Shown: positions 32,699-53,901 of the stretch, piece by piece
Layout of the letters: each line of letters begins with the position of its first letter
Numbering within the stretch: position 1 is the stretch's first letter
From: Candidatus Peregrinibacteria bacterium
GTDB taxonomy: Bacteria > Patescibacteriota > Gracilibacteria > Peribacterales > Peribacteraceae
DNA length: 64,000 bases
Assembly (NCBI GenBank): GCA_016186175.1
Contig: JACPMB010000009.1
Span: forward strand, 1-64,000
Direction of reading: 5' to 3'
Program-made: the position numbers and the translations under genes
Notes under the pieces: generated by a model
The model's input: the letters and a program-made list of their open reading frames with translations, nothing else
What the model was told of the DNA's origin: nothing
The model's database searches: none

Positions 32699-32720
32699 TT
32701 TGCATCTCAAAGGAAAATTC

Positions 32721-35700
32721 ATGCTTCCCTCCCTCCTTCTTGGGAAGGATACCCACCGGGATCTTGCAGACCTTCTGAAAAAAGAAGGAGATTTGACGAT
32801 ATCCGGCGCGTCCAACGAAACGGCGAAAATACTGCTCGTGAGTCATCTTCTCGGTTTTCATCCGCAAAAAACCCTGTTCGTGACTGGCTCTGAAGAATCG
32901 GCGGAAAGCCTGCAGCACTGGCTGCGGTTTTTCGGGCAGCGCGCGCATATCCTCCATCCCATTGAGGATGCCGCCGGCGCGGTACGGCCGGAACGCCTTC
33001 AGGCGTTTCTTATTGCGATGCGGCCCGGGAACGCTGAAGTGTTTATATTATCGCGCGAGGCGTGGGAAATGGAATTTCCTTCCATTGACGAACTTGAAGA
33101 AGGAAAAATCACATTATCAGTCGGAAAAGATGTTAACTTCACGGAATTATTCGAGTCGCTTATAGAGCGCGGTTATGGCCACGGCAGCGATCTCTATCTG
33201 CATCCAGGGGAATACCGCCGAATCGGCGACGTTCTCGATCTGTTCCCCATACAGTCGGAACATCCGTACAGGATCAGGTTCGATTTTGAGAAAGTGCAGA
33301 AGATCATGTCGGTTGACAGAGACGATCTTTCAAAAACATCGGACGCGGGAAGCAACATGGCGGCGTATCCGGCGTTATTCCAAAAAAAGATGGCCATTCG
33401 CAGCCAGTTCCCTACGGATGCGCTCCTGATTTTGGACGATCAGGAAGACATTGTCACCCCCAGAATGATTCCAACTCTCTCGTTTACCGCGTTCCCGGAG
33501 CACGCTGAGCATCATGCACATCTTCGTTACCTGTCCGTCCTTAAGTTCTACACGCTCGCCGATTTTTTGAACGATATTCGCGACAAGCTGGCGCAGGAGT
33601 GGACTCTGCTGGTGGTTACCAAGCGCATGAAAGAGCTGGAGGAAATTCTGACGGAGGAACGCGTGCCGCATGACGACGGAGTTACCGGGCACAGAGGGGC
33701 AATCGCCCTAATTCCTGCGTCGGATGAGGATATCCTCCCCCACTCGCTCCAGAACCCGGACCTGCGCTGCGCCCTGCTCACAGACCGCGAGATTTTCTCT
33801 CTTCGCAAAGCTGGAAAACAGCGCAGCATGGCTAAACTAGCGCTCGACTTCGTCACATCGCTGCAGCAAGGAGACTACGTGGTGCACATGGAACACGGGA
33901 TCGGACATTTTGAGGGGATGACGCAGAAGGCGATTGACGACGTGTCGCGCGAATATCTGGAACTCACCTATGCAGAGGGCGATAAGCTGTTCGTGCCGGT
34001 GGATCAGGCGGACAAATTGAGCAAATTCGTGCACGAAGAAGGCGATGAACCGGTGCTAACCCGTCTTGGAACGACCGAATGGAAACGAGTTAACGAAAAA
34101 CTCCGGTCGGAAACGAGGGAAATCGCAAAGGAACTTTTGAATCTGTATGCGAAGCGCGCGAGAGCCAAAGGTCACACGTTCCCCGACGATGGCGGCCGCC
34201 AGCGAAAATTTGAAGAGCAATTCCCGTACACCGAAACGCCCGGACAGCTAAAGGCGATCGAGGACATCAAGCGCGACATGGAAAGCGAGCACCCAATGGA
34301 CCGTCTGGTGTGCGGAGACGTCGGATTTGGGAAAACGGAAGTCGCGATGCGGGCCGCGTTCAAGGCGGCCGAAGCGGGAAGGCAGGTCGCTGTAATCGCT
34401 CCGATCACGATTCTTGCCGACCAGCATTACCGCAATTTCATCGAAAGAATGAACCCGTTCAAGATCAGGATTGAAATGATGAGCCGGTTCAGGTCCGTAT
34501 CCGAGCAGCGGAAAACCCTCGAAGGACTGCGAAAGGGGGATGTGCAAATCGTAATTGGAACTCACCGGCTGCTCCAGGACGACATCCGGTTCCACAATCT
34601 CGGCCTGGTCATAATTGACGAAGAGCAGCGGTTTGGCGTCAAGCAGAAGGAGAAATTCAAGGAAATGCGCGCGTCGGTGGATATTCTCACGCTCACCGCG
34701 ACTCCGATCCCGCGGACTCTAAATCTCGGCCTCCACAAGCTTCGCGACATCACCACCATCACCACTCCCCCGCCCGGGCGCCTGCCGATCATCACCGAAG
34801 TCCGGAAATACTCCGACGAATTGACGCGCCAGGCGGTCCTCGCCGAGATCGGGAGAAAAGGGCAATGCTTCGTTCTGCACAACCGCGTGGAGACGATTGA
34901 CGCTTTTGCGCAGAAACTTCAAGCTCTGATTCCAGAGGCGACATTCGTAGTCGGCCACGGGCAATTGAAACCGGAAACTCTCGAAGAAAGGATCATCGCC
35001 TTCAAAGACGGCAAGTACGACGTACTCGTAAGCTCGACGATCATCGAGAACGGCATTGACCTCCCGCGGGCGAACACTTTGATCGTGAATGAGGCGGAGC
35101 GATTCGGGCTCAGCCAGCTGTACCAGCTGCGAGGGCGGGTGGGCCGGAGCAGGGTGCAGGCGTACGCGTATTTTCTGTATCACAGTCAAAAATTGAAAGA
35201 CGACGCTAAAAAGCGCTTGCGCGCGATTGTCGAGGCATGCGAGCTGGGCAGCGGCTTCCAGGTCGCCATGCGCGACCTGGAAATACGCGGCGCCGGCGAA
35301 ATTCTCGGAGCCAGCCAGTCCGGCACCATGCAGACGGTGGGCGTCAGCCATTATCTCCGGCTTCTGAAAAACGCGGTCGAGGAACTGCGCAACGGAGCGA
35401 AAGACAGAGAAGAAGAAGACGCGGCGGCTGAGATTCAACTGCCGGTCGAGGCGCTTATCCCATCCTTCTACATCACGGACAACGAGGAGAAAATCAGCGT
35501 CTATCAGAAACTCGCCGGAAGCGAGGACGAGGCGATTCTTAAAGAATTCGAAGCAGATCTGCGCGAGGAATTCGGAGAGCTTCCGGCGCAGGTGGTTTCG
35601 CTCTTCCAAATCCTGCGGCTTAAGATGGCATGCCGGCGCGCCGGAGTGATCCGCGTGAAGGCCGAAGACCCTTCGTCGGGCCCGGGGCATGGCCGGCATG

Positions 35701-35912
35701 ATTCGGAGATCGTTCTTGCTCTGAGCCCTCGGGTCACCGCCAAAGAGATCATGCAACTCCTGCATGTGAATCCTAAGTGGAAGATCAGCGGGGCGTCGCT
35801 GAGGATCCCGCAATCCGCATTGGGGCGAAAGGAGGATGGAAAAGATTGGTTGTACGAACTCACGGAGGAAGTGAAGTTGTTACAGAGGAGGAAAGCAGGG
35901 AAAAAGGCGTAA
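32721..35912 (+). CDS. mfd: Transcription-repair coupling factor Mfd
   Basis: GDYVVHMEHGIGHFEGMTQ...MDRLVCGDVGFGKTEVAMRAAF...IIDEEQRFGVKQKE...TATPIPRTLNLGL...GRVGRSRVQAYAYFLY. Confidence 0.97.
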   Translation: MLPSLLLGKDTHRDLADLLKKEGDLTISGASNETAKILLVSHLLGFHPQKTLFVTGSEESAESLQHWLRFFGQRAHILHPIEDAAGAVRPERLQAFLIAMRPGNAEVFILSREAWEMEFPSIDELEEGKITLSVGKDVNFTELFESLIERGYGHGSDLYLHPGEYRRIGDVLDLFPIQSEHPYRIRFDFEKVQKIMSVDRDDLSKTSDAGSNMAAYPALFQKKMAIRSQFPTDALLILDDQEDIVTPRMIPTLSFTAFPEHAEHHAHLRYLSVLKFYTLADFLNDIRDKLAQEWTLLVVTKRMKELEEILTEERVPHDDGVTGHRGAIALIPASDEDILPHSLQNPDLRCALLTDREIFSLRKAGKQRSMAKLALDFVTSLQQGDYVVHMEHGIGHFEGMTQKAIDDVSREYLELTYAEGDKLFVPVDQADKLSKFVHEEGDEPVLTRLGTTEWKRVNEKLRSETREIAKELLNLYAKRARAKGHTFPDDGGRQRKFEEQFPYTETPGQLKAIEDIKRDMESEHPMDRLVCGDVGFGKTEVAMRAAFKAAEAGRQVAVIAPITILADQHYRNFIERMNPFKIRIEMMSRFRSVSEQRKTLEGLRKGDVQIVIGTHRLLQDDIRFHNLGLVIIDEEQRFGVKQKEKFKEMRASVDILTLTATPIPRTLNLGLHKLRDITTITTPPPGRLPIITEVRKYSDELTRQAVLAEIGRKGQCFVLHNRVETIDAFAQKLQALIPEATFVVGHGQLKPETLEERIIAFKDGKYDVLVSSTIIENGIDLPRANTLIVNEAERFGLSQLYQLRGRVGRSRVQAYAYFLYHSQKLKDDAKKRLRAIVEACELGSGFQVAMRDLEIRGAGEILGASQSGTMQTVGVSHYLRLLKNAVEELRNGAKDREEEDAAAEIQLPVEALIPSFYITDNEEKISVYQKLAGSEDEAILKEFEADLREEFGELPAQVVSLFQILRLKMACRRAGVIRVKAEDPSSGPGHGRHDSEIVLALSPRVTAKEIMQLLHVNPKWKISGASLRIPQSALGRKEDGKDWLYELTEEVKLLQRRKAGKKA

Positions 35913-38818: not shown

Positions 38819-38835
38819 TCATAAGAATCTTATGA
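38819..38835. promoter_or_regulatory. Operator-like perfect inverted repeat TCATAAG-AAT-CTTATGA over the hicB start
   Basis: Overlaps -10 TATCAT of TTGAAT-N17-TATCAT and the start codon. Confidence 0.6.
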
Positions 38836-39077
38836 CTCCTTTGCCGACCGTCGCCATCGAGCTCATTCCCGATCAGGAATTGGGAGGATTCACCGCTCAT
38901 ATTCCAGATATTCCCGCATATGGAGAAGGCGAAACTGAAGAAGAGGCGATTGCAGATCTGAAAACAGGACTGCAACTCTTTGTTGAAGCGAATGGCCTTG
39001 AGGCCGCTTTGCATCGAATAAATGCCCCGTCGCACATCCGTCAGGTGAATTTGGGCGATCTTGTAGCGCATGGGTAG
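38832..39077 (+). CDS. hicB: HicB-family antitoxin
   Basis: IELIPDQELGGFTAHIPDIPAYGEGETEEEAIADLKTGLQLFVE. Confidence 0.9.
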   Translation: MTPLPTVAIELIPDQELGGFTAHIPDIPAYGEGETEEEAIADLKTGLQLFVEANGLEAALHRINAPSHIRQVNLGDLVAHG

Positions 39078-39297
39078 GATGCCGCGAGTTACCGGCAAAG
39101 AGATGATCCGCTTTCTCGTGAGGCGGAATTTTTCTCTTTATCGTGTGAAAGGAAGCCATCATCTTATGAGGAACGGGGAAGCGCAGACGGTAATTCCAAT
39201 CCACGGAAATCAGGATCTCAAAACGGGCACATTAAGAGGGATTCTGCGCGACATTAATATGGAGCCCGAGGAATTCGAGAGGCTATGGCATCACTGA
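39070..39297 (+). CDS. hicA: HicA-family toxin
   Basis: PRVTGKEMIRFLVRRNFSLYRVKGSHHLMRNGEAQTVIPIHGNQDLKTGTLRGILRDINM. Confidence 0.92.
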   Translation: MGRMPRVTGKEMIRFLVRRNFSLYRVKGSHHLMRNGEAQTVIPIHGNQDLKTGTLRGILRDINMEPEEFERLWHH

Positions 39298-39420
39298 TGG
39301 ATCGCGGTCAATATGGATAATAACCAATATGCAGGAAGAAATTGATAATCCGGCCATTGGAAGGATGCGGGTATTCCAAATGCAGCGGTTCTCTGCTAGA
39401 ATTGTAAGAAATCCTCACTT

Positions 39421-39771
39421 ATGCCGCTTGTTCCTCCCGCCCCTCCTGTGCCGCCAAAAATCCCCACCGGTCGCGAGCTTTACGACGCGATCATGGGGCA
39501 TATCGAGCCGGAACTTACGACCGACGCCGCGAAAACTCTTGACGATAAATACAAAAATGAAACACCGGAGCAGCGCGTCGTGCGCACGAAGCGCTACGAT
39601 CTTGCCTTTGAACGATATGAGGAGGCGTACCGCGAATACATTGCCACGCTCGACGCGCAGGTGACGCGATACCGCCGCGCTGCGTTCGCGCACACAGAAT
39701 CGCGCGATCGCGACGCCGAAAAAGGCGTTTTGGGACGGATTGGGACTTTTTTCCAGCAGGCAGCCGCATGA
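39421..39771 (+). CDS. Small helical protein, 'PTG/IEP' family copy 1
   Basis: PTGRELYDAIMGHIEPELTTDAAKTLDDKYKNETPEQRVVRTKRYDLAFERYEEAYREYIATL; paralogous to 40519 and 50882 ORFs. Confidence 0.8.
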   Translation: MPLVPPAPPVPPKIPTGRELYDAIMGHIEPELTTDAAKTLDDKYKNETPEQRVVRTKRYDLAFERYEEAYREYIATLDAQVTRYRRAAFAHTESRDRDAEKGVLGRIGTFFQQAAA

Positions 39772-40346
39772 ACATCGAAGCGCTAAATCAAGATGTCAAA
39801 GCGGACGGCCCGACGCCCGAGAAACGGCAGGACCTTGACGAATCCGCGAAAAATCCGGACGGAAAGCATCGGGACAACGTTGATGATAAAAAAGAAAAAA
39901 AGAACGACGAAAATAAAGAGCAGAAAGATCAGGAGAAAAAATCCATGGACGAAAAAATTCTGGACTGTCAAAAACGGGCCGACCTGCGGGTCTCGGCGTA
40001 CAAAAAACAACTGGACGATATTGATGCACGCAACAAGAAGCTTGATGAGCAGGCGAAATCGGCAAGCGAACGGACGGATTTCATCGCTAACATAACGGAA
40101 AGCGCACTTGTGCCGGGTAAAATTTACAGCGAAGAGACTCCCGTAAAGCCGCACGCATCTGCAATGCGGCAGGAGCAATTCGTCGCAACCGCCGCCGAAA
40201 TGCCAGCAGACCAGGATACCGCGAAAGAGAAAGGCGTCCGCCCGCCTGACTGGCGGGAAAAACAGGAGAAGCAGGCGGCCGCCAAGGAACAACCAGCAAC
40301 CGCCGTTGCCGGCCAGGAAGAAGGCGCAAAACAGGCGGCTGCGTAA
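39768..40346 (+). CDS. Charged coiled-coil protein, translationally coupled to family copy 1
   Basis: ATGA overlap; KKEKKNDENKEQKDQEKKSMDEKILDCQKRADLRVSAYKKQLDDIDARNKKLDEQ. Confidence 0.7.
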   Translation: MNIEALNQDVKADGPTPEKRQDLDESAKNPDGKHRDNVDDKKEKKNDENKEQKDQEKKSMDEKILDCQKRADLRVSAYKKQLDDIDARNKKLDEQAKSASERTDFIANITESALVPGKIYSEETPVKPHASAMRQEQFVATAAEMPADQDTAKEKGVRPPDWREKQEKQAAAKEQPATAVAGQEEGAKQAAA

Positions 40347-40468
40347 TCCAGTCTTCGCCAAGTCTTCGACCAGCAAGTCAGGCTACGCTCTGCGGAGCTT
40401 CGGTCGGCAGGCAAAGGGGAAAGTTATTTTGCGCGACATGATTTTGGAAGTTTTGCAACCGTACTCCA

Positions 40469-40497
40469 TTGCCGGTTTGGCCGGATTTTGCTAGAAT
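40469..40497 (+). promoter_or_regulatory. Putative promoter TTGCCG-N17-TAGAAT upstream of family copy 2
   Basis: Hexamers read directly; TGCTAGAAT extended -10 also present upstream of copy 1 (39397-39402). Confidence 0.5.
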
Positions 40498-40518
40498 GTC
40501 AGGATTTACAAAATACAC

Positions 40519-40857
40519 ATGCCTACGCAAACATCCGCCGGTTCGCAGCAGCTCCCGACAGGGGAAGTCATATACAACGCGATCATGAGCCAGATCGAGC
40601 CCGATCTGGCGACGAATTCGGAGATCAGGACCGACGCCAGGGAGAAGGGCGAATCCGCCGCGAAGTTCAAGGCGCGCATGGAAAGATACCGCAAGGCGTT
40701 CTCGCTTTACGAGAAGTGCTTCGACGCTTACGTGGAGCACCTGCGCGGCGAATCGAAAAATACGCGGTCCGCGGCCCGCATAGCGACCGAGCAGAGACTG
40801 CATGACGAGGAAACCGCGGAGGCCGACAAACTCCTTTCGGAAATGACCAGAGCTTAA
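40519..40857 (+). CDS. Small helical protein, 'PTG/IEP' family copy 2
   Basis: PTGEVIYNAIMSQIEPDLATNSEIRTDAREKGESAAKFKARMERYRKAFSLYEKCFDAYVEHL. Confidence 0.8.
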   Translation: MPTQTSAGSQQLPTGEVIYNAIMSQIEPDLATNSEIRTDAREKGESAAKFKARMERYRKAFSLYEKCFDAYVEHLRGESKNTRSAARIATEQRLHDEETAEADKLLSEMTRA

Positions 40858-40872
40858 TTTCCACCTTTTTAT

Positions 40873-43800
40873 ATGAACACGCGCACTCTTTATCCGCAAA
40901 AACAGTTTTCCATCCGCGAGCGCCGGTTGTGCTTTCAACTCGACGGCCCGGAATCGGCGGAGCCCGCGCAACAGGAAGCGAAAGAGAAGAGCGAGAAGGG
41001 CAACAAAGAGACGATCAGCAAATTCGTCGGCGTCGCCGACAAGCATATCGGCGATTTCTTCGGCCCCGGCGTGGGCAACACGGTAGGACTCGCCGCAGAG
41101 AAATTCACGCAGGAGTACATGAAAAAGGCCGGGGAAGCCAAAATTGCCAATCAAGATCAGGGGCAGGCGAAGATAAAAGGGAGCGCCGAGCCGGAGGTAA
41201 AGGCCAAAGGAGCGGGCAGTGATCAGTATCGGCCGTCTATCGGGCAGGCGAAAGCCGGTGCGGAAGCAGCGAACAATTTATCTTCTGTCAAAAGCCACGG
41301 CGAAAAAATACAAACGGAGATATCCGCGGATATTAAAGAAGCACAAAAAACCATCGAACAGACAATACAGAAGATGCGGAACAGCCGCGATGCGGCAGAT
41401 CAGATCGCCTCCATGGTGCAAATAATAGAAGCTCTGGTCACCGCTGCCTCCGGAATTATGCGACGCATATTCCCTTACGGCGTTTCCGCTCCGAATCCTG
41501 CCGTTACCGCCCCCAATGCCCCGCCGACAGCGCTAAACGCTCCGCCGAATGCGTTGCCATCCGCGCCAAACGCCCCGGGATCCGCACCAGATACGCTCGA
41601 CAGAGACATGCGCACCCCGCTTGATCTTGTCCAAAACCCTCGGGCGTCCGCGGATCGCCTGGAGAAAACTTTCGATGCAAGCGGCAAAGAGCGGACCGCC
41701 GAACGTCAGAAAGCGCAAAACGAATTCGACACGGCCATGCTCGCACTTGATGGATGGACGGCAGACCCAAACAAATCCGAAAGCCAGAACCAATCCGCGC
41801 ATGACAAACTGGTGGCCCGTGTCCAGGAGGCGCTGAAAGTATTGCGTCAGGTGAATGTACAGAATGCCTCCCCGCGACTGAAGGCACTGTATCAGCAGAG
41901 GGCAGAACTTATGGCACAAATGCGGAAAATGGAAGCAAGCGGCGACACGGCCGGAGCCGATGCCGCGTTGAAACACATTGCAGATCTTGCACCGGAGATT
42001 ATCAAACTTGAGCAGGCCACAAAGATCAATACGGCTCCGGCAAATGAGGCCGTTACCAAGCGGATCAAAGAGCTGCGCGCCGAACAACAGCGCAGAGGTG
42101 ATCTTGTGACACGGAATATCTCCCGCCCGCCCGCTTTGCTCGCGGCTCTCGAAGGCGATCGTATTGATCTAACGTACGCGTATATAAGAGATTTGCAGTC
42201 TCTCCCGGGTATTCCGCTCATGGCGAAACTAATCAACAGCCTGCCCGCGACAATGCGCACAAACCCAGACGGCAGCACGATCAGCATCACCACGGACGGC
42301 GGCGTGCTGAGGATGCACAACGCGCCGCCGATGTTCTTTACGCAGGAAGTCACACAGTCGGTCGGCCAACTATTGAGGCAATTGGCTGAGAGCACGGGGA
42401 AAGGCGTTACAATGACCCCCAAAGAGCGCATGGAGAAGCTGGACATGGAAATCAGGACGCTGCGCCAGAATATGCAAAAAGCCGCCGAAGCCTTCAACAA
42501 GTCCGCGGGACAGCCGAATGACGCCAGAATCAAGCTCGGACGAGCGGCGGAATCAGCGGCGCGGGCGCTGTACGATCTCGCAGAAGACATCGCCGGCGAC
42601 CTGAACCTGCCAGTGACGTTCCGTGACGGTGCATACAATGCGCGGGAGGAGGCGGCGAAGTTCTTAAAGACGATACGCGAGCAAATTGCGACGTTGGAAA
42701 AGATAGGGAAAGCCAACCCTCCTTCTCCTGAACCCGTCGGTGAAACCCCGTCAAAGCGCCTCGACGCCTTCAACAAGGAGCGCGCTGAACGCGCGAAGGC
42801 AACCACGGCCGCCGTAAACGCTTTCAACGCAAACCGAAACAACGACACCTACGCCGCCGTTCGCAAAGCAATCTTCGCCGAGCGGCAATCAATCTCCACG
42901 CCAAATCTCAATACGGTTCTGGCAGGAAATCCCGACGCCCCGACTCGCGACAGGATACGCAAGGAGGTGAACCAGCAGAACGACAACCTGGACGCGACCG
43001 AAAAGATGGTCGAGGCCGCTTGGAAGACGACGCCCGAGGGGCAGAAGAAGTCCGTGGAAGACGCCAGACGGCGCCTCGACGCCTTCAACAAGGAGCGCGC
43101 TGAACGCGCGAAGGCAACCACGGCCGCCGTAAACGCTTTCAACGCAAACCGAAACAACGACACCTACGCCACATTCTTCACTATAGAAAGCGCAAACCCA
43201 AAGGCCTCGAAGGACCGGGCGGAAAAGAATCTTGCAGATCTCCAAAAGAATCTCGCCCCTCTGGGGCAGGCAGGGCAGGATATCTGGAAGAGCATCCAGG
43301 ACGCCATTAACAACGGGAACGCCGTTCCTGTCTCCCCGACAGAGCCGATTGCAAAAAAGAACGACGCGGCCAAGAAAAAATTAGATGATGACGTCGCGAA
43401 GAAGACATTGGATGATGCGGCCAAGAAAAAGCTGGACGACGCGGCCAAGAAAAAATTAGATGATGACGTCGCGAAAAAGGCATTGGACGACGCGGCCAAG
43501 AAAAAGCTGGACGACGCGGCCAGGGGGAAGGAGAAAGAGGCGGCCGGCAAAAAGATCGAAAACGAGCGAGCGAAGCGCGAGGCTAGCATCAATACGTTCC
43601 TTGATGCCGTCACAAAAAACGCCGATAGCAGCGATAATGCCAGGGAGGCTCTCGCAAAAGAAACCAAGGGGATCGCGGGCCCGGGCCTGATCGCCGTCAA
43701 TGTCGCCACCTACCGCGTCGCTCTCGACAGATACATCAATGCTCTCAGGGCGGAGCAGGCAACCATCAACAGCAACAGGAATCTTTGGGAGAACGAGAAT

Positions 43801-44601
43801 CACAACGACGCCCACAGACGCACGGAACGGCGCCTCGGTGCGGTCATTTCCGAACTTGATCGCACCGCCGGGCTTGAAAAGACAATCAAACAAACCGAGG
43901 ACAAAATAGCCGCGGAGAAGAAAAACGCCGCGGAATCAACTGCAGTAGAGCTCCATAGGAAGAATCTCGATGCCTTTAATAATGAACGGATGAACGCCGC
44001 GAGGATCACGGAAAATGCGGTTGATGCATATTCCAACGCACCCGATGTCAATACTTATGAAGCAGCCATTAAGGCGATTGCAGACGAAAGAGATATAATT
44101 TCAGAAAAGAGAGTCAAGGAAGTTTTGGCCGGAGAGAGAAATAAGGATGTTGCGGGATCAATCATCAATCAAACATCCACTCATCGGCTGTTTCTCAATA
44201 ATATAGCCGATCGCATTCAAAAGACGTGGAAAACGTTACAGGAGGGCCAAAAGAAAGCGGAATATGTGAAGAAACAAGCAGAGGAACCGGTTAAGAAAGC
44301 GGAGGCCCCGACTAAGGCAAAAACAGAAAGTGAAATCGCCGGTCTTGATGCCGAGATTAACTTATTGGAAGCCAGAGAGAAGGAACGCTGGGACGCATAT
44401 GTAAGGAGCACGGCTGAACAGGTCGTATGTCTAGGTGTAACATCGCTTAACAATCCTAAACAGGCAGCAGAACAGTCTAAAAAGCGTATAGAAGCGCAAA
44501 ATCAGACCGCCGCTATCGGCAGACAACTCGATGAAGTGCGAAAGCAGCTTTCCGACCGACGCGCTATTCGCGATAAATTGAAAAAGACACTCGGTCAGTA
44601 A
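40873..44601 (+). CDS. Large 1242-aa repeat/coiled-coil protein of unknown function
   Basis: Uninterrupted ORF; N-term FSIRERRLCFQLDGPE; Pro/Ala/Asn linker; about 105-aa repeats; Lys/Asp-rich AKKKLDD repeats. Confidence 0.88.
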   Translation: MNTRTLYPQKQFSIRERRLCFQLDGPESAEPAQQEAKEKSEKGNKETISKFVGVADKHIGDFFGPGVGNTVGLAAEKFTQEYMKKAGEAKIANQDQGQAKIKGSAEPEVKAKGAGSDQYRPSIGQAKAGAEAANNLSSVKSHGEKIQTEISADIKEAQKTIEQTIQKMRNSRDAADQIASMVQIIEALVTAASGIMRRIFPYGVSAPNPAVTAPNAPPTALNAPPNALPSAPNAPGSAPDTLDRDMRTPLDLVQNPRASADRLEKTFDASGKERTAERQKAQNEFDTAMLALDGWTADPNKSESQNQSAHDKLVARVQEALKVLRQVNVQNASPRLKALYQQRAELMAQMRKMEASGDTAGADAALKHIADLAPEIIKLEQATKINTAPANEAVTKRIKELRAEQQRRGDLVTRNISRPPALLAALEGDRIDLTYAYIRDLQSLPGIPLMAKLINSLPATMRTNPDGSTISITTDGGVLRMHNAPPMFFTQEVTQSVGQLLRQLAESTGKGVTMTPKERMEKLDMEIRTLRQNMQKAAEAFNKSAGQPNDARIKLGRAAESAARALYDLAEDIAGDLNLPVTFRDGAYNAREEAAKFLKTIREQIATLEKIGKANPPSPEPVGETPSKRLDAFNKERAERAKATTAAVNAFNANRNNDTYAAVRKAIFAERQSISTPNLNTVLAGNPDAPTRDRIRKEVNQQNDNLDATEKMVEAAWKTTPEGQKKSVEDARRRLDAFNKERAERAKATTAAVNAFNANRNNDTYATFFTIESANPKASKDRAEKNLADLQKNLAPLGQAGQDIWKSIQDAINNGNAVPVSPTEPIAKKNDAAKKKLDDDVAKKTLDDAAKKKLDDAAKKKLDDDVAKKALDDAAKKKLDDAARGKEKEAAGKKIENERAKREASINTFLDAVTKNADSSDNAREALAKETKGIAGPGLIAVNVATYRVALDRYINALRAEQATINSNRNLWENENHNDAHRRTERRLGAVISELDRTAGLEKTIKQTEDKIAAEKKNAAESTAVELHRKNLDAFNNERMNAARITENAVDAYSNAPDVNTYEAAIKAIADERDIISEKRVKEVLAGERNKDVAGSIINQTSTHRLFLNNIADRIQKTWKTLQEGQKKAEYVKKQAEEPVKKAEAPTKAKTESEIAGLDAEINLLEAREKERWDAYVRSTAEQVVCLGVTSLNNPKQAAEQSKKRIEAQNQTAAIGRQLDEVRKQLSDRRAIRDKLKKTLGQ
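42756..42855 (+). repeat. Exact 100-bp direct repeat, copy 1
   Basis: Identical to 43071-43170; offset 315 bp (105 codons). Confidence 0.97.
43071..43170 (+). repeat. Exact 100-bp direct repeat, copy 2
   Basis: Identical to 42756-42855. Confidence 0.97.
43366..43515 (+). repeat. Two tandem 75-bp in-frame units encoding AKKKLDDDVAKK(T/A)LDDAAKKKLDDA
   Basis: Units 43366-43440 and 43441-43515 nearly identical. Confidence 0.92.
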
Positions 44602-44632
44602 CATCGCTCTGTACTTTTCCCCTTTTCATACC

Positions 44633-44806
44633 ATGCCTCCAGCCACTCCAGCTTCCGAAAAGCAACTTCGCACCCGATACTTGAATTTGGTGGATACGGC
44701 GAATGCCGCCGCCGCCAAGGGAGATACGGCTGCGCGCATCACCGCGGAACGCGAAATCGCCAGTGTCGGAGCCGAAATTGACGCTATTCGCAGCAAGCGC
44801 CGATAG
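44633..44806 (+). CDS. Small helical protein (57 aa), not in the ORF track
   Basis: MPPATPASEKQLRTRYLNLVDTANAAAAKGDTAARITAEREIASVGAEIDAIRSKRR*; sits between co-oriented genes. Confidence 0.55.
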   Translation: MPPATPASEKQLRTRYLNLVDTANAAAAKGDTAARITAEREIASVGAEIDAIRSKRR

Positions 44807-44836
44807 ATCTATAAATATTTTTCTTTTCACACCAAC

Positions 44837-45445
44837 ATGACCTTCTTCGCTCTCCAAGACGCACTCTTCTCCGACGTCGCCGGTTACAGCCTTTCCGCAT
44901 CGGGCAAAGCGGTCATAGGACGCGAGGCGGACCCGGCGCTCACTTACGGCGAGTGCACGCCGGAGGCGGTGGAGCACATACTCTCCGTCGCAGAGGCCAA
45001 GCCTGGCGAAACGTTCTACGATCTCGGCTCCGGCACGGGAAAAATGGTCGTGTTCGCGGCGTTTTTCATGCCGCTCAAAAAGTCCGTGGGCGTGGAGCTG
45101 ATTCCGGAATTGCACGAGGCGGCGCAGATGGTCGGGCGAAGATACATCGAGGAAATTCAGCCGAAACTGGAAGGCGACAAACGCAACACCAGATTGGAAT
45201 ACCGCCTCGGCGACATTTTCGAAGCGGACATACACGACGGCGACGTGATCGTCTCGCACTGCTGCACGTGCTTCGACGATGCGTTGATGCAAAAACTAAG
45301 CGACAAGCTGGAAACGTGCAAGCCAGGCGCGCGCATCGTGACGATTACGCGCGGCCTCTCCTCCCCCGAGTTTGAACTCCTCAGCGTTACGCCGTGCCAA
45401 ATGGGCTGGGGACAAGCGACGGCGAACGCGTATATCAGGTTATGA
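44837..45445 (+). CDS. DOT1-like SAM-dependent methyltransferase, copy 1
   Basis: LTYGECTPEAVEHILSVAEAKPGETFYDLGSGTGKMVVFAAFFMPLKKSVGVELIPELHEAA...VIVSHCCTCFDDALMQKLSDKLETCKPGARIVTITRGL. Confidence 0.85.
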   Translation: MTFFALQDALFSDVAGYSLSASGKAVIGREADPALTYGECTPEAVEHILSVAEAKPGETFYDLGSGTGKMVVFAAFFMPLKKSVGVELIPELHEAAQMVGRRYIEEIQPKLEGDKRNTRLEYRLGDIFEADIHDGDVIVSHCCTCFDDALMQKLSDKLETCKPGARIVTITRGLSSPEFELLSVTPCQMGWGQATANAYIRL

Positions 45446-45511
45446 ATCAAAACGGGCGCGAAATGCCGCACCCTGCGCTCCCATTTATTCTCAATCCTTA
45501 CCCGCCCATGT

Positions 45512-46114
45512 ATGACCGCCACCGAACTCCATGATCTCCTCTTCGGCTCCGTGCAGGGATATTCCCTTTCGGCGTCCGGCCGCGCGAAGGTCGGCCGCGA
45601 GGCGGATCCGATCCTGACCTACGGCGAAATCACGCCGGAATCGGTGCAGTACATGATGGAAATAGCCAACCCGCAAACCGGCGAGATTTTTTACGATCTA
45701 GGCTCCGGTACCGGAAAAGCGGTCATCCTTGCGGCCTTCGTTGCGCCGTTCAGGCGTGCGACCGGCGTCGAGCTGATCGAAGACCTTTTCCAGTCCGCAT
45801 CCGAAAGCGCGGCGCGGTATCACAGCGAAGTGAAGCCGCTGCACCCCGAAAAGATGGAGCAGGAAGTGAATTTTGTGCACGGAAGCATGTTCGACCACGA
45901 CACCTCTGACGGCGACGTCTTCTTTACGCATTGCACGTGCTTCGACGACCCGATGATGGATCAAATCAGCAAAAAATTGGAAGCATGCAAGCCCGGCACG
46001 CGCGTGATCACCGTCACAAAAGGGCTCACCTCGCCGGAGTTTGATCTTGTCCACTCGGCGCCGTACAGGCTCGGGTGGGGAGAGGCGACGCTGTGCTTCT
46101 ATCGGAGAAAATGA
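45512..46114 (+). CDS. DOT1-like SAM-dependent methyltransferase, copy 2
   Basis: LTYGEITPESVQYMMEIANPQTGEIFYDLGSGTGKAVILAAFVAPFRRATGVELIEDLFQSA...VFFTHCTCFDDPMMDQISKKLEACKPGTRVITVTKGL. Confidence 0.85.
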   Translation: MTATELHDLLFGSVQGYSLSASGRAKVGREADPILTYGEITPESVQYMMEIANPQTGEIFYDLGSGTGKAVILAAFVAPFRRATGVELIEDLFQSASESAARYHSEVKPLHPEKMEQEVNFVHGSMFDHDTSDGDVFFTHCTCFDDPMMDQISKKLEACKPGTRVITVTKGLTSPEFDLVHSAPYRLGWGEATLCFYRRK

Positions 46115-48432
46115 TCTTTCTTCGTAATCTGTCCTTTTCGGCAAGTCGCTTCTCTTTCCCAAAGGAACGGAGACTTTGTCACGCAGTCGAAAGCAGAAGC
46201 GAAGCTAATACAAACGGCGAAGTGAAAAATTCGCCCGAATTTTGCGTGAAAGCCAGCATGAGCGAATGTATCAACAAAGCTGACAAATTTGCGGTATCCG
46301 CCCGTGCCGTCACCAATTTTATGGAGAACTGCGCAAAGTTTGTCGGCGAATTTCTGCAGAAGCTCAATAAGGCTATGCCCGACGGCATTAAAGCGCACGG
46401 GAATATCCCATTAATCCCCGTGCACACAGAAGGCGGCGCAAAAACGCAGATTGCCGATACACCGCCTTCAATACAGAATTCCACGAATGTCGAACCTGTC
46501 GCCTCCCTGAATATAATCGAGAAACAGGAATCAGAAAAACTTGTCCTATACAACATGATCGAAAATCCAGCGGTGACAAAGGCTAGGATGGCTAAGCTTC
46601 AATCTGCCGAAATTGCGTCGAATGTCACGCCTGCAAATTCTGCGGACGCCGAACCGGCGCAGAGAATCAATCTACTATCTGCCAGTGATCGTGCAAATGA
46701 TCGCGTGAACGAGCCGCGCGTTTCACGCGAAGTCGTCGCAGAGCGCGTCCGGCGCGGTGAGATGTTTTTGGATAGCTCGAATTTCACCAGGTCGGCCGAA
46801 GGAGTGTGGTCCGCTCCGGATACTCCATGGAAGTTCAGGGCCGATAACAACGGGCGGTGGCTCGCGCAACGGTCGAATACGGATCCGTGGATATATGTGG
46901 ATTCCTCTGCCAGCACAAGCGCGGGCGATCAGCGCATTGCCACACTCCTGCAATTCATGCGGCAGAGCAGCTCTATTACACCCGAACATGTTCAGGATGT
47001 GCTGCGTGCCAACAAAAGACAGGAGATGAAGCGCGAGGGCAGTCTCTGGCTGCTGCAAAACGGATGCACCCCGTATACGGGCGCCGGCGGAGGATTCGAG
47101 TACAGCACCGGCTTCTCGTTCAACTTGAATCCACAATTCCAATTCGTTGATGGAAAGTGGGCCGTGCGCTGGAGAACCAGAGATAATTGGAGCGATCCTT
47201 CAACTGTACGGGCTCCATCGGGACGAGGCGAGACGGCAATCAACGCCATTCTTGGGCACCTTTCCGTTCTCAATACGCGTATCAACGAGGCTGGAACGCT
47301 CCATGCCGGGCCATCGGACGCCACGGCGGCGGGCCCAGCCGCCGTCGTTAATCTGGTGCCGGCGGCGCCTGCCGAGTTACAACGGCAGGCAGAACCGCAA
47401 AATCCGGAGCAACGAGCGGAACGTGAAAGGCAAAAGGAGATGGCGGCAAATTCCATCGGTATTTTCCAGAACAATACGGCGATAGCCGCTCAGCAATACG
47501 CCAAGGACGGGAGCCCCGGAAATCTGGTGAACATCATCCAGGCGGCGCAAGAAGAACTGACGGCATTGCGACGGAATATGATCCTGATGCAGGATGAGCC
47601 GGAAATAAGTAAAAACATGGCCGAGCGCATCGGCCAAATTCAAACAATGCTAACGGAAGGAAAGCTTGTGGAGCATGTTACAGTACTTGCCAAGCGTGCG
47701 GACGATGCGCTGGCCCGCGCCCGCGCAAGAGTGAACGAAGTCATCGGCAGGGAACAGCAGACCATCATTAACGAAAACGTCGTACGGAAATCCGGCGGAT
47801 GGTTCGGCGGGGTTCATCGCGCCATTACCAACTCCAATCCATACGAGATACAAATCACCAATGCCAACATGACGATCTCGCGCATGAGACTGGTCATGGA
47901 ACAAATTGACAAAGCCATAGCACAACCCGATGCACTCACGAAAATCCGCGCCGCAGAAACCGCCTTCAGTTTCATACGCAACGCGAACCGGAGTAATGCG
48001 CAATTCAATCAGGAAATGTACAAACTGGAGCAGGAAGCGATAACCGTCTCGCGCGATATAGCGATCTCCGTTTCCACCACGATTGCGACTCTCGGCACGA
48101 GCGCCGCGTTTTCACTGGCCGCCCGCGGAGCAACCGCCGCCGCAGGCGCGGCGTCCAATACAGGAGTCACCACGATTCTCAGCATATTGCGGCAGGGAGG
48201 GGTCAAGCTGGCACAGCGCGGCGGACAAGCAGCCCTGAAGGCGCTGCCGTCGGCCGTCGGAGTAACAACCGATGAAATGAGAACAAAAACACAAGGAGGA
48301 ACCATTGATTCCGGTGATGTCTTAACGGCGGCAATGAGCGTTGCAGACCAGGTTGGCCAGAAGGCGTTATCCAGCCCCTTTGGCAAAGCCAGTGGCGTAG
48401 TACGGCGGCTGGCGAAAAAATTACTTGGCTGA
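46111..48432 (+). CDS. Large (about 773 aa) protein of unknown function
   Basis: ATGA overlap with methyltransferase copy 2; N-term FSFPKERRLCHAVESRSEA; two GRW-type motifs; hydrophobic C-term segment AISVSTTIATLGTSAAFSLAARGATAAAGAA. Confidence 0.82.
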   Translation: MIFLRNLSFSASRFSFPKERRLCHAVESRSEANTNGEVKNSPEFCVKASMSECINKADKFAVSARAVTNFMENCAKFVGEFLQKLNKAMPDGIKAHGNIPLIPVHTEGGAKTQIADTPPSIQNSTNVEPVASLNIIEKQESEKLVLYNMIENPAVTKARMAKLQSAEIASNVTPANSADAEPAQRINLLSASDRANDRVNEPRVSREVVAERVRRGEMFLDSSNFTRSAEGVWSAPDTPWKFRADNNGRWLAQRSNTDPWIYVDSSASTSAGDQRIATLLQFMRQSSSITPEHVQDVLRANKRQEMKREGSLWLLQNGCTPYTGAGGGFEYSTGFSFNLNPQFQFVDGKWAVRWRTRDNWSDPSTVRAPSGRGETAINAILGHLSVLNTRINEAGTLHAGPSDATAAGPAAVVNLVPAAPAELQRQAEPQNPEQRAERERQKEMAANSIGIFQNNTAIAAQQYAKDGSPGNLVNIIQAAQEELTALRRNMILMQDEPEISKNMAERIGQIQTMLTEGKLVEHVTVLAKRADDALARARARVNEVIGREQQTIINENVVRKSGGWFGGVHRAITNSNPYEIQITNANMTISRMRLVMEQIDKAIAQPDALTKIRAAETAFSFIRNANRSNAQFNQEMYKLEQEAITVSRDIAISVSTTIATLGTSAAFSLAARGATAAAGAASNTGVTTILSILRQGGVKLAQRGGQAALKALPSAVGVTTDEMRTKTQGGTIDSGDVLTAAMSVADQVGQKALSSPFGKASGVVRRLAKKLLG

Positions 48433-48486
48433 AATCTTCAGTCACCGATCGGCGCCCTTCGGCTCGCTTCGTTCGCTCAGGGTCAT

Positions 48487-48560
48487 TCGATCTGGTCCAC
48501 TCGGCGCCGTACAGGCTCGGGTGGGGAGAGGCGACGCTGTGCTTCTATCGGAGGAAGTAG
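48487..48560 (+). pseudogene. Duplicated 3' end of DOT1-like methyltransferase copy 2
   Basis: Aligns with 46041-46114 at offset 2446 including the stop position (TGA vs TAG); few mismatches in 74 nt. Confidence 0.92.
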
Positions 48561-48586
48561 CGCTATTCAGCTATAATCATAATCGC

Positions 48587-48673
48587 GCTGGGGTGGCGGA
48601 ATCGGCAGACGCGCCGGCCTTAGAAGCCGGTGGGAGCAATCCCTTGGAGGTTCGAGTCCTCTCCCCAGCACCA
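48587..48673 (+). tRNA. tRNA-Leu (anticodon TAG), CCA encoded
   Basis: GCTGGGGTGGCGGAATCGGCAGACGCGCCGGCCTTAGAAGCCGGTGGGAGCAATCCCTTGGAGGTTCGAGTCCTCTCCCCAGCACCA; long variable arm; TATAAT at 48572-48577. Confidence 0.96.
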
Positions 48674-48711
48674 GTCAATTTTTTTCTTTGAGTGTATTCA
48701 CGGCGAACCCA

Positions 48712-48760
48712 TTGACCGCCTGAGTTGACCACTGTACAATAAGTACTCGTTTACGTACTT
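48712..48760 (+). promoter_or_regulatory. Promoter and operator-like repeats of the YefM/YoeB module
   Basis: TTGACC-N17-TACAAT; TGTACA at 48733-48738; inverted repeat AAGTAC-N8-GTACTT 48741-48760. Confidence 0.65.
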
Positions 48761-48765
48761 AACCA

Positions 48766-49011
48766 ATGACTACTACTTCGTATACCGATTTCCGTGCGCA
48801 TCTCGCGCAATTCTTCGATAAAGCGGAGCACGACTGCGAAGAGATCGTCGTGAGCCGCGGCAAGAACAGAAAAGTGGTCATTCTTTCTCTGGATGTTTAC
48901 CTCTCATTGCAGGAAACAGCGTACCTTCTTTCATCAAAGAAGAACCGGAAGCATCTGGAGAAATCGTTGAACCAGGCCAGGAACGGCAAGACGACCCCCG
49001 CTCCATTCTAA
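48766..49011 (+). CDS. yefM: YefM/Phd-family antitoxin
   Basis: SYTDFRAHLAQFFDKAEHDCEEIVVSRGKNRKVVILSLDVYLSLQETAYLL. Confidence 0.9.
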   Translation: MTTTSYTDFRAHLAQFFDKAEHDCEEIVVSRGKNRKVVILSLDVYLSLQETAYLLSSKKNRKHLEKSLNQARNGKTTPAPF

Positions 49012-49015
49012 GAGT

Positions 49016-49273
49016 ATGCCGCGAATCCGTTTTACCGAAGAAGCAAATAAAGATTTCCGCTATTGGAAGCGTCATGATTCCACGAAGACCAGGCGCATCG
49101 AAAAACTGTGCAAAGACGCCACACTCCATCCATTTGAAGGAATCGGCAAACCCGAGCCGTTAAAGTTTGATCTCCATGGGTGTTGGTCCCGTCGCATTGA
49201 TCGCATAAATCGTCTTGTATACCAGGTCACGAAAAAAGAGATCGTCATCATTTCCTGCAGGTATCATTATTGA
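49016..49273 (+). CDS. yoeB: YoeB-family toxin
   Basis: FTEEANKDFRYWKRHDSTKTRRIEKLCKDATLHPFEGIGKPEPLKFDLHGCWSRRIDRINRLVYQV...IVIISCRYHY. Confidence 0.95.
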   Translation: MPRIRFTEEANKDFRYWKRHDSTKTRRIEKLCKDATLHPFEGIGKPEPLKFDLHGCWSRRIDRINRLVYQVTKKEIVIISCRYHY

Positions 49274-50861: not shown

Positions 50862-50896
50862 TATCCGCTATAATACAAGGATTGCAGATTGCGCAG

Positions 50897-51244
50897 ATGT
50901 TCGATCCGGCTTCAATCGCAGGCCAAAACAGTACCCTCATTCCGACCGGTGATAAACTGTACGACATGCTCATGCGGAGCATCGAGCCGGATCTCATGAC
51001 CGGCCAGATTCCGCTGCTTGACGCAAAGTACAAAAACGAAACGCCGGGGGAAGCCGCAGTGCGAGCGGAGCGGTACAAGAAAGCATTCGCCGAGTACGAC
51101 CTGCAACTCTCGGCGTATCTCGCAAAACTTCATGCCAAAGCGCGCGAATACCAGTCAACAGCGCGAAATTCCATCGAAAAAGATGAGCGCACAAAGGAGA
51201 GGCGGGCGCTCTCCGACATTGAGAGTGCGATTGGAGCGGCATAA
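50897..51244 (+). CDS. Small helical protein, 'PTG/IEP' family copy 3
   Basis: PTGDKLYDMLMRSIEPDLMTGQIPLLDAKYKNETPGEAAVRAERYKKAFAEYDLQLSAYLAKL; TATAAT at 50869-50874. Confidence 0.8.
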   Translation: MFDPASIAGQNSTLIPTGDKLYDMLMRSIEPDLMTGQIPLLDAKYKNETPGEAAVRAERYKKAFAEYDLQLSAYLAKLHAKAREYQSTARNSIEKDERTKERRALSDIESAIGAA

Positions 51245-52140: not shown

Positions 52141-53901
52141 TTATTCTTCAACGATACTGATTCCGAGTTCCCGCAACTGCTTCTCCGGCACGGACGACGG
52201 GGCCCCGAGCATCAAATCCCTGGCTTTCTGATCTTTGGGGAAAGCGATCACCTCGCGTATGTTCGGCTCGCCGCAAAAAATCATCGCCAGACGATCGAAA
52301 CCCCATGCGATCCCGCCGTGCGGAGGCGCACCGTAGCGGAACGCGCGCAGCATGTGTCCAAAACGCCGCTCGGCTTCCGCGTCGTCTATGCGCAGGATTT
52401 CGAAAATTTTCTTCTGCAGGTCGTGCTCATGAATCCGCAGCGAGCCTCCAGCTATCTCGAAGCCGTTGAGGGCGACGTCGTACGCCTCGGCTTTCGCTTT
52501 AAGCGGGTCGCGGTCGACCATCTCCATACTTGCAACATTCGGGCGCGTGAACGGATGATGAACCGCCGAAATCTCCCCCGTGTCCTTGTCCTTCTCGAAC
52601 ATCGGAAAATCGGTGATCCAGCAATATGCGAATACGTCCGACGGGGCCAGGCTGCGCCTTCGCGCAATCTCCGTCCTGACGGCGCCGAGGCTGACGCATG
52701 CGGTATAAAACTCATCTGCGGCAAAAAACAGCAAATCCCCGTCCTCCGTGCCAGCCGCGTTTGCCATCTTCGCCGTCGCGTCCCCTCCGAGTTTTTCCAC
52801 AGGGACGCCATCGAATTTCCTTCCATTCTTCTTTATCCAGGCGAGCCCCTTGGCTCCGTGGATTTTCGCATGCCCGGTCAGATCATCAATCTCCTTGCGA
52901 GAGAGCGCGGCTCCGCCCGGGACTCTCAAGCATTTTACAACGCCGCCGGCCTCCGCGGCCTTCGCAAAAACGCCGAATCCGCATCCGCGCGCCATGTCTG
53001 TCATATCCGTGAAAGTCAATCCGTAACGGAGGTCCGGCTTGTCTGATCCGTATGCGTTCATCGCTTCGTCGTATGTCATGCGCGGGAAAGGCACCGAATG
53101 AATCTTAATGTCCCGCCGCAGCCCTACGGTTAAAGCAATTAGCGCCTCTTCGGTCAATTTCATGACGTCTTCCGCATGAACAAACGACATTTCGATGTCA
53201 ACCTGGGTGAATTCCGGCTGGCGGTCCCCGCGCTGATCTTCGTCGCGGAAACATCGCGCAATCTGCATATAACGGTCGAGTCCTGCTATCATGCAAAGCT
53301 GCTTAAGCTGTTGCGGGGACTGCGGCAGCACGTAAAACCGGCCACCATGCAGCCGAGACGGAACCAGATATTCGCGCGCGCCTTCCGGAGTGCCTTTTAT
53401 CAGGATCGGCGTCTCAACCTCGATGAAATCGCGATCATAGAAGAATTTTCGCACAGCCTGCAGAAGACGATGACGGAGCATCACGTTCCGCTTCATTCGC
53501 TCGCGCCGGATGTCGAGGTACCGGAATTCCAGGCGCAGCTCCTCGTTTATGCCGATGTCCTGATCAATTTCAAAAGGAGGCGTTTTTGATTCGCTTAAAA
53601 CGACGAGGCTCGCCACCTCCACTTCTATTTCGCCGGTTGGATTCTCCGCGCGTTCTGCTCCTTCCAGCCTCCTTCGCACCTTGCCCTCGATTTTCAAAAC
53701 CCATTCCGGCCGCGCGGCTTCCGCCGCCAAAAAGGCGTCGCCGCCCGGCGCGACGACTATTTGCGTAGTTCCGTACCGGTCGCGCAGATCAATGAAGATC
53801 AGTCCGCCGTGATCGCGCCGCCGGTTCACCCATCCGCAGAGAACCGCGCCTGTTCCGATGTGGGAGGCGCGCAATTCGCCGCAGGTATGAGTACGAAGCA
53901 T
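52141..53901 (-). CDS. aspS: Aspartyl-tRNA synthetase
   Basis: MLRTHTCGELRASHIGTGAVLCGWVNRRRDHGGLIFIDLRDRYGTTQIV...RCFRDEDQRGDRQPEFTQVDIEMSF...GIAWGFDRLAMIF. Confidence 0.97.
   Translation of the reverse strand: MLRTHTCGELRASHIGTGAVLCGWVNRRRDHGGLIFIDLRDRYGTTQIVVAPGGDAFLAAEAARPEWVLKIEGKVRRRLEGAERAENPTGEIEVEVASLVVLSESKTPPFEIDQDIGINEELRLEFRYLDIRRERMKRNVMLRHRLLQAVRKFFYDRDFIEVETPILIKGTPEGAREYLVPSRLHGGRFYVLPQSPQQLKQLCMIAGLDRYMQIARCFRDEDQRGDRQPEFTQVDIEMSFVHAEDVMKLTEEALIALTVGLRRDIKIHSVPFPRMTYDEAMNAYGSDKPDLRYGLTFTDMTDMARGCGFGVFAKAAEAGGVVKCLRVPGGAALSRKEIDDLTGHAKIHGAKGLAWIKKNGRKFDGVPVEKLGGDATAKMANAAGTEDGDLLFFAADEFYTACVSLGAVRTEIARRRSLAPSDVFAYCWITDFPMFEKDKDTGEISAVHHPFTRPNVASMEMVDRDPLKAKAEAYDVALNGFEIAGGSLRIHEHDLQKKIFEILRIDDAEAERRFGHMLRAFRYGAPPHGGIAWGFDRLAMIFCGEPNIREVIAFPKDQKARDLMLGAPSSVPEKQLRELGISIVEE

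What the first reader, a model, noticed from the sequence alone, without database searches (positions are those of the whole stretch)
38819..49273. Accessory island with DOT1-like methyltransferases, giant repeat proteins and a small paralog family
Between HicBA and YefM/YoeB lie co-oriented genes: PTG/IEP small proteins, coiled-coil proteins, a 1242-aa repeat protein, a 57-aa helical ORF, two tandem DOT1-like methyltransferases and a ~773-aa protein, ending at tRNA-Leu. Some starts overlap upstream stops by ATGA, suggesting coupling. I cannot match this combination to any described system. One hypothesis is that the methyltransferases modify Lys-rich segments (AKKKLDD) of the neighbouring giant protein.
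Basis: partly seen in the sequence, partly recalled or inferred. Interest (0 to 1): 0.75.

Follow-up and report, generated by a model that had tools for sequence, protein, structure and literature searches.

The report
Leader-tagged giant proteins with small partner

Summary
The genes are there as described, in a Candidatus Peribacteraceae genome. They are not a foreign island: they fill a variable interval between mfd and aspS with a conserved tRNA-Leu. Its core is a two-gene module. (2) A partner gene immediately downstream, usually coupled. Bodies of 91 partners fall into 58 unrelated BLAST clusters, yet 71/91 share an N-terminal leader, E-x-R-L-[L/I/C]-[F/H], against 24/657 other local genes. 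The 1242-aa and 773-aa proteins both carry it. Partners lack transmembrane segments and are cysteine-poor; S and partner are missing together from two near-complete genomes. Best reading (inferred): a lineage-specific sorting/export leader with S as cognate chaperone or adaptor. It resembles, but failed membership in, the planctomycete/LEPR-XLL export signals. AlphaFold gave S a confident fold but showed no confident leader docking.

The parts
32688..35912 (+). mfd (transcription-repair coupling factor homolog), conserved left anchor of the variable interval
   Evidence: tblastn synteny in same-genus and other-genus loci, 63-85% identity
37089..38504 (+). probable further leader protein (MELRLLYF..., start codon uncertain), inserted with 36038-37000 between mfd and S1 in this genome
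   Evidence: motif scan of window N-termini; no domain above cut-off; absent from same-genus loci
38832..39297 (+). HicBA toxin-antitoxin pair, separate insertion
   Evidence: Pfam HicA 4.2e-15; absent at this place in relatives
39421..39771 (+). S1, small helical PTG/IEP protein
   Evidence: family profile A1; 67 of 74 family genomes
39768..40346 (+). S1 partner, 192-aa Lys-rich coiled-coil protein, start overlaps S1 stop (ATGA); leader not recognisable here, though the partner at the same place in G002 and G033 has one
40519..40857 (+). S2, small helical PTG/IEP protein
40873..44601 (+). 1242-aa partner of S2: leader, then coiled-coil/repeat body (three ~35-105-aa repeats at aa 630, 735, 1032; KKKLDD x4 at aa 834-876)
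   Evidence: homolog only in G001
40918..40935 (+). leader motif ERRLCF (aa 16-21 of the 1242-aa protein)
   Evidence: shared N-terminal motif
44633..44806 (+). 57-aa ORF, probably spurious or remnant
   Evidence: no counterpart between partner and MT1 in G001-G003
44837..45445 (+). MT1, DOT1-like methyltransferase
   Evidence: PF08123 E=1.3e-17; best solved relative 9ne1 E=2e-21
45512..46114 (+). MT2, DOT1-like methyltransferase
   Evidence: PF08123 E=2.8e-18; 9ne1 E=7e-21
46040..46110 (+). 71-bp direct repeat, copy 1 (3' end of MT2)
   Evidence: blastn 95.8% identity
46111..48432 (+). 773-aa leader protein (ATGA overlap with MT2), gained in this genome only; C-terminal domain aa ~527-740 shared with leader proteins elsewhere
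46165..46182 (+). leader motif ERRLCH (aa 19-24 of the 773-aa protein)
48486..48556 (+). 71-bp direct repeat, copy 2 (orphan MT2 3' end after the 773-aa gene)
48587..48673 (+). tRNA-Leu(TAG), conserved in this interval even where the module is absent
48766..49273 (+). YefM/YoeB toxin-antitoxin pair, separate insertion
   Evidence: absent in the L033 and L036 intervals
50882..51244 (+). S3, third S gene, without a partner in this genome
   Evidence: in G003 the homolog is followed by 365-aa and 536-aa genes, the second with a leader
52141..53901 (-). aspS, conserved right anchor

Best explanation
The region is a local version of a hypervariable mfd-aspS locus built from S/leader modules. SHOWN: S is a family-specific ~115-aa helical protein. 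The gene directly after it encodes a large, fast-changing, soluble, cysteine-poor protein that carries a short N-terminal leader (aromatic-rich, then E-x-R-L-[L/I/C]-[F/H] at about residue 12-20). The leader is the only thing these proteins share, and module genes are gained and lost together. INFERRED: the leader is a sorting signal that directs these proteins, by a route other than Sec, to one destination (most likely the cell surface or outside the cell). S is the cognate small partner (chaperone/adaptor) that binds the leader region during co-translation or keeps the coiled-coil cargo export-competent. The bodies diversify because they face outward. The DOT1-like methyltransferases are a later addition in three genera that probably methylate lysines of module proteins in general (cargo or S), not the 1242-aa repeats specifically.
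For: S in 67/74 genomes and 35/40 genera, 1-5 copies, none in ~364 other phylum genomes. 86 of 91 partners start within -20..+25 bp of the S stop, 28 by exact ATGA. Leader in 71/91 partners against 24/657 other genes and 11/1297 internal windows; about 7 of the 20 misses are visible variants (ERRPVF, EHRSVF, ERREIF). Bodies form 58 clusters, 42 of which have the leader. Codons at the motif are as varied as background, so selection is on protein. A multiple alignment of 66 partners recovers only 'RxxExRL'. One predicted TM segment in 92 partners, Cys 0.2% against 1.6% in all ORFs of G030. Empty-site control: G008 and G011 (100% and 96% complete, S-less) have mfd-tRNA-aspS with nothing of the module between. 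A planctomycete export signal of similar form exists in the same lineage (14,634-aa protein, PF07595), followed 9 bp later by an ERRLLF leader protein. MT linkage 7/7.
Against: Export has not been shown. No secretion machinery is linked to the module. AlphaFold on two natural in-frame S-leader pairs gave a confident S but a low-confidence leader (mean pLDDT roughly 50-73) and no demonstrated docking. S is not 1:1 with leaders genome-wide: G030 has one S but several leader-type proteins. The leader fails PF07595 and LEPR-XLL. MT linkage comes from one orthologous locus, so the seven cases are not independent.
Confidence: 0.47

Rival explanations
1. Intracellular assembly: the leader is a docking tag that recruits coiled-coil proteins to an internal structure (cytoskeleton, membrane-attached scaffold or compartment), with S as scaffold or adaptor; nothing is exported.
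For: No signal peptides or TM; bodies are coiled-coil/SMC-like and one has a DnaJ domain; S is predicted as a 65-residue helix with a helical head, suited to a coiled coil.
Against: Very rapid body turnover (58 clusters in 91) is unusual for an internal scaffold; cysteine depletion; similarity in form to an export signal.
Confidence: 0.27
2. Inter-organism conflict effectors: leader proteins are polymorphic effectors delivered to a host or competitor, S is chaperone or immunity, and the methyltransferases modify target proteins.
For: Hypervariable modular bodies; a C-terminal domain with a glycine-rich hydrophobic stretch is shared between otherwise different leader proteins; DOT1-like proteins of Legionella are discussed as host-directed (PMC10117894).
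Against: No toxin or enzymatic domain in 66 partners; S is not paired with every leader protein; MTs carry no leader.
Confidence: 0.12
3. One reading: the two methyltransferases modify the AKKKLDD repeats of the 1242-aa protein.
For: Same operon in this genome and in G001.
Against: MT pair kept without the protein in G002 and G003; repeats absent in the G001 homolog; MTs of G017, G022, G049 sit beside unrelated partners.
Confidence: 0.05
4. Ordinary accessory island at a tRNA (mobile or defence element).
For: Toxin-antitoxin pairs and a 71-bp repeat show insertions at the locus; MTs match PADLOC mad2 weakly.
Against: Anchors and S module are conserved in synteny across genera; no integrase seen among the ORFs of the interval; tRNA conserved without the module; only the generic methyltransferase part of mad2 is matched.
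Confidence: 0.05

Closest known systems
Planctomycete-type N-terminal export signal (Pfam PF07595 Planc_extracel; consensus RRLxxExLExRxLLA, PMC8567305) and LEPR-XLL domain (NF012209)
   Same: Short N-terminal E-x-R-hydrophobic motif on very large, otherwise unrelated proteins, instead of a Sec signal; true PF07595/LEPR-XLL-type proteins occur in the same family (G030), one in tandem with an ERRLLF leader protein
   Different: Core is E-x-R-L-[LIC]-F rather than L-E-x-R-x-L-L-A; R/K, not L, before E; no match to either model; comes with a dedicated small partner gene S, not reported for the planctomycete signal as far as I could find
Secretion chaperone-effector gene pairs (for example type III chaperones, type VII/LXG helper proteins)
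   Same: Small helical protein encoded just upstream of, and coupled to, a large variable substrate with a conserved N-terminal region
   Different: No sequence or fold match of S to any solved structure; no known secretion system linked; resemblance in gene layout only
DOT1-like protein lysine methyltransferases (yeast/human/kinetoplastid DOT1, PDB 9ne1; archaeal aKMT, PDB 5jwj/5fa8, NF041081; Legionella DOT1-like)
   Same: PF08123 catalytic domain, SAM motif YDLGSGTGK, GVEL; best PDB hit is annotated DOT1
   Different: 200-aa stand-alone domain; DOT1's NNFAF signature (recalled from knowledge) is replaced by an H-x-T-C-F stretch; restricted to 3 genera and tied to the S/leader locus; substrate unknown

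Membership tests
Planc_extracel PF07595 / LEPR-XLL NF012209 | match to the family HMM at the N-terminus | tested here: not met
   six ERRL leaders gave no hit at E<=10, while two giants of G030 run as positive controls hit PF07595 (1.2e-4, just below its cut-off) or LEPR-8K (0.0012, above cut-off)
Planc_extracel PF07595 / LEPR-XLL NF012209 | protein is exported to the cell surface | not testable with these tools
   needs fractionation or imaging
Type III/VII secretion chaperone-effector pair | chaperone related in sequence or fold to known chaperones | tested here: not met
   profile search of PDB sequences and Foldseek PDB without significant match
Type III/VII secretion chaperone-effector pair | direct binding of small protein to substrate N-terminus | tested here: inconclusive
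   AlphaFold of two natural in-frame S-leader pairs: S confident, leader not
DOT1-like lysine methyltransferase | PF08123 domain above gathering score | tested here: met
   64.4 and 66.6 bits against 23
DOT1-like lysine methyltransferase | lysine methylation activity on a protein | not testable with these tools
   requires assay
tRNA-associated genomic island | integrase and tRNA as attachment site, locus empty in relatives as a block | tested here: not met
   no integrase in the interval; tRNA-Leu and S module conserved in order across genera
Known anti-phage defence system | PADLOC model set complete | tested here: not met
   only the methyltransferase stretch of mad2 is matched

The most novel reading that the evidence does not exclude
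Peribacteraceae possess a previously undescribed, lineage-specific protein sorting or export pathway, defined by an E-x-R-L-[L/I/C]-[F/H] N-terminal leader and a small cognate helical protein, which carries a hypervariable set of large proteins to the cell surface or host-contact zone; some genera add DOT1-type methylation of this cargo.
Probability: 0.42. Interest if true: 0.85.

Novelty: categorically new. Interest (0 to 1): 0.7.

Why it matters
How ultra-small, probably symbiotic CPR bacteria get proteins to their surface and partners is an open question. A shared leader on 71 of 91 partner genes whose bodies fall into 58 unrelated clusters, with a dedicated partner gene present in ~90% of a family's genomes and nowhere else sampled, gives a concrete, sequence-recognisable handle: it predicts which of the many 'hypothetical' giant proteins share a destination and offers a two-component module to test in a laboratory strain. 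It also removes a misleading lead (methyltransferase acting on one repeat protein) and replaces it with a testable one (methylation of module cargo or S in three genera).

Tried and rejected
1) MT-1242-aa co-occurrence: fails in G002 and G003. 2) KKKLDD as conserved substrate: absent in the only homolog. 3) tRNA island: tRNA-Leu conserved in all intervals checked, including empty ones. 4) Known domains in 66 partner proteins: only coiled-coil/SMC-like hits, one DnaJ, two DUF4116, stray tape-measure matches. 5) S fold in PDB: no match by profile or Foldseek. 6) AlphaFold docking of leader on S through natural in-frame read-through of the S2 and L086 stop codons: leader poorly predicted, inconclusive; an alignment including leader-only rows was misaligned and not used. 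7) Leader as a DNA/RNA element: codons at E, R, L are as degenerate as background. 8) First alignment too diverse for a genome-contig scan; redone with a subset. 10) Orthology of the window's 1925-aa gene with G030's 1865-aa leader protein: only a 288-aa weak match and no leader. 11) Literature searches found no description of the leader or the S family in the library held.
Full report
Setting. The window lies on contig C38 of a 904-kb, 82%-complete genome. Related contigs found with the small-protein family are titled Candidatus Peribacteraceae, Peribacteria or Peregrinibacteria, that is, ultra-small CPR/Patescibacteria. Handles used below: G000 is this genome; G001-G003 are the other members of its genus; the rest of its family (f1) is 74 genomes in 40 genera.

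Observation. The two methyltransferases are clear PF08123 (DOT1) members at 64-67 bits, 51% identical to each other. Their best solved relative is annotated DOT1 (9ne1, E about 1e-21), followed by archaeal protein-lysine methyltransferases. The coordinates are right, but three interpretive elements change. The 57-aa ORF has no counterpart at that place in the sister genomes. The tRNA-Leu is a fixed feature of the interval, found in all ten genomes tested, including two without any of these genes. HicBA and YefM/YoeB are absent at the corresponding places in the same-genus contigs.

The locus. Synteny places the block between mfd (32688-35912) and aspS (52141-53901). The same interval in G001-G003, in G022/G049 (another genus) and, with broken ends, in G017 holds: small PTG/IEP protein (S) - variable partner - one or two DOT1-like methyltransferases - tRNA-Leu - aspS. 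G033, G006 and G005 have S - partner there, without methyltransferase. In the S-less, near-complete genomes G008 and G011, mfd, tRNA-Leu and aspS lie close together with no module gene between mfd and aspS. This is therefore a lineage-old variable locus, not an imported island.

S family. A profile of 28 S proteins finds S in 67/74 genomes and 35/40 genera of the family, 1-5 copies each. Among 380 genomes sampled across the phylum, only the 16 from this family have it. There is no Pfam, NCBIfam or PDB match. AlphaFold predicts a short N-terminal helix, a second short helix and a 65-residue helix with pLDDT above 90 over the conserved part; Foldseek against PDB finds nothing.

Partner genes and the leader. 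The gene immediately downstream of S was read at 91 distinct S genes. 86 start within -20..+25 bases of the S stop, 28 by exact ATGA overlap. Complete partners are 119-2027 aa, median 602. After removing the first 40 residues, BLAST groups them into 58 unrelated clusters. Yet 71 of 91 carry E-x-R-[LIMVF]-[LIVCMRFAW] in the first 40 residues, mostly at residue 12-20, with consensus [RKAG]-E-[RHAQ]-R-L-[LIC]-[FH] preceded by an F/S/H/R-rich stretch and followed by a P/G/A/E-rich one. Controls: 24/657 other genes of the same loci, several of them additional leader proteins beside S, and 11/1297 internal windows of the partners; Fisher p about 1e-59, which ignores relatedness. On a per-cluster basis 42 of 58 clusters have it. 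About seven of the twenty misses are near variants by eye. Codons at the conserved positions are as varied as background, so the constraint is on protein. A blind alignment of 66 partners recovers only this stretch. In the window, the 1242-aa protein (ERRLCF, residues 16-21) and the 773-aa protein (ERRLCH, residues 19-24) have it, and probably the protein at 37089-38504 (MELRLLYF). Partners have essentially no TM segments (1 in 92), few known domains and strikingly little cysteine (0.2% against 1.6% over all ORFs of G030, an approximate comparison because the ORF set is mechanical). In the single-contig genome G030 (1.2 of 1.25 Mb read), about seven proteins look like leader proteins, only one of them next to the single S. 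Three score above nearly all control stretches; the rest overlap the control tail.

What it works like. In planctomycetes the motif RRLxxExLExRxLLA (PF07595) at the N-terminus of giant proteins is thought to be an export signal, and carriers were found in the SDS-soluble fraction or are the longest proteins of the genome (PMC8567305). G030 encodes a 14,634-aa protein with a PF07595-type N-terminus and another with LEPR-XLL, whereas six ERRL leaders give no hit to either model. The 14,634-aa gene is followed after 9 bp by a leader protein reading TEAERRLLF. The leader is therefore like, but not a member of, that signal class, and it adds a dedicated partner gene. I infer a sorting or export leader with S as chaperone or adaptor. 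This is not shown: two AlphaFold models of natural in-frame S-leader read-throughs left the leader at low confidence.

Methyltransferases. In the family they occur in 7/74 genomes (three genera); in the phylum sample only the two same-genus genomes included have them. In six of seven they lie directly downstream of an S/leader-type partner; in G017 the partner runs off the contig. Because this is one orthologous locus, the linkage is suggestive rather than independent evidence. The pair persists in G002 and G003, which have no 1242-aa protein. The G001 homolog (33% identity) has no KKK. G022-type partners belong to a cluster whose other members lack methyltransferases. A specific role on the 1242-aa repeats is thus unlikely; cargo or S in general, or an unrelated substrate, remain open.

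Local evolution. The 773-aa gene is bracketed by a 71-bp, 95.8%-identical direct repeat of the MT2 3' end (46040-46110 and 48486-48556) and is absent from the other three genomes of the genus, so it was probably gained by repeat-associated recombination. Its C-terminal domain (residues about 527-740) recurs in leader proteins of G028 and G038, in a probable leader protein of G037, and next to the module of G104, showing mosaic reuse.

Limits. Metagenome bins may be incomplete; ORFs and starts are mechanical; the leader regex was derived from the same set in which it is counted, although the contrast with controls is large; no expression or localisation data exist; the paper library held lacks most subscription journals.

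Noticed in passing
window 50882-51244: S3, a third S gene, has no partner downstream in this genome, whereas its homolog in G003 (L033:4947-5297) is followed by two co-oriented genes, the second with a leader.
   Followed up: partly
window 46040-46110 and 48486-48556: 71-bp direct repeat of the MT2 3' end brackets the 773-aa gene, marking a recent gain.
   Followed up: yes
G030:C1:206341-250245 (L171-L173): A 14,634-aa protein with a planctomycete-type PF07595 N-terminus sits 9 bp upstream of a 320-aa ERRLLF leader protein with one TM segment.
   Followed up: partly
L173:15553-17232: 559-aa leader-type protein whose C-terminal part has a His-Gly ... Ala-Cys-Tyr-Gly-Gly-Gly pattern that by eye recalls a cysteine peptidase; no Pfam hit.
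   Followed up: no
window 16221-21998 (-): 1925-aa coiled-coil protein with a 288-aa weak match to G030's 1865-aa leader protein but no leader of its own.
   Followed up: partly
window 36038-37000: 320-aa protein of unknown family, inserted between mfd and S1 in this genome only.
   Followed up: no
window 44837-46114: Both methyltransferases match the methyltransferase part of the PADLOC mad2 model (E about 1e-10), probably only shared catalytic domain.
   Followed up: no
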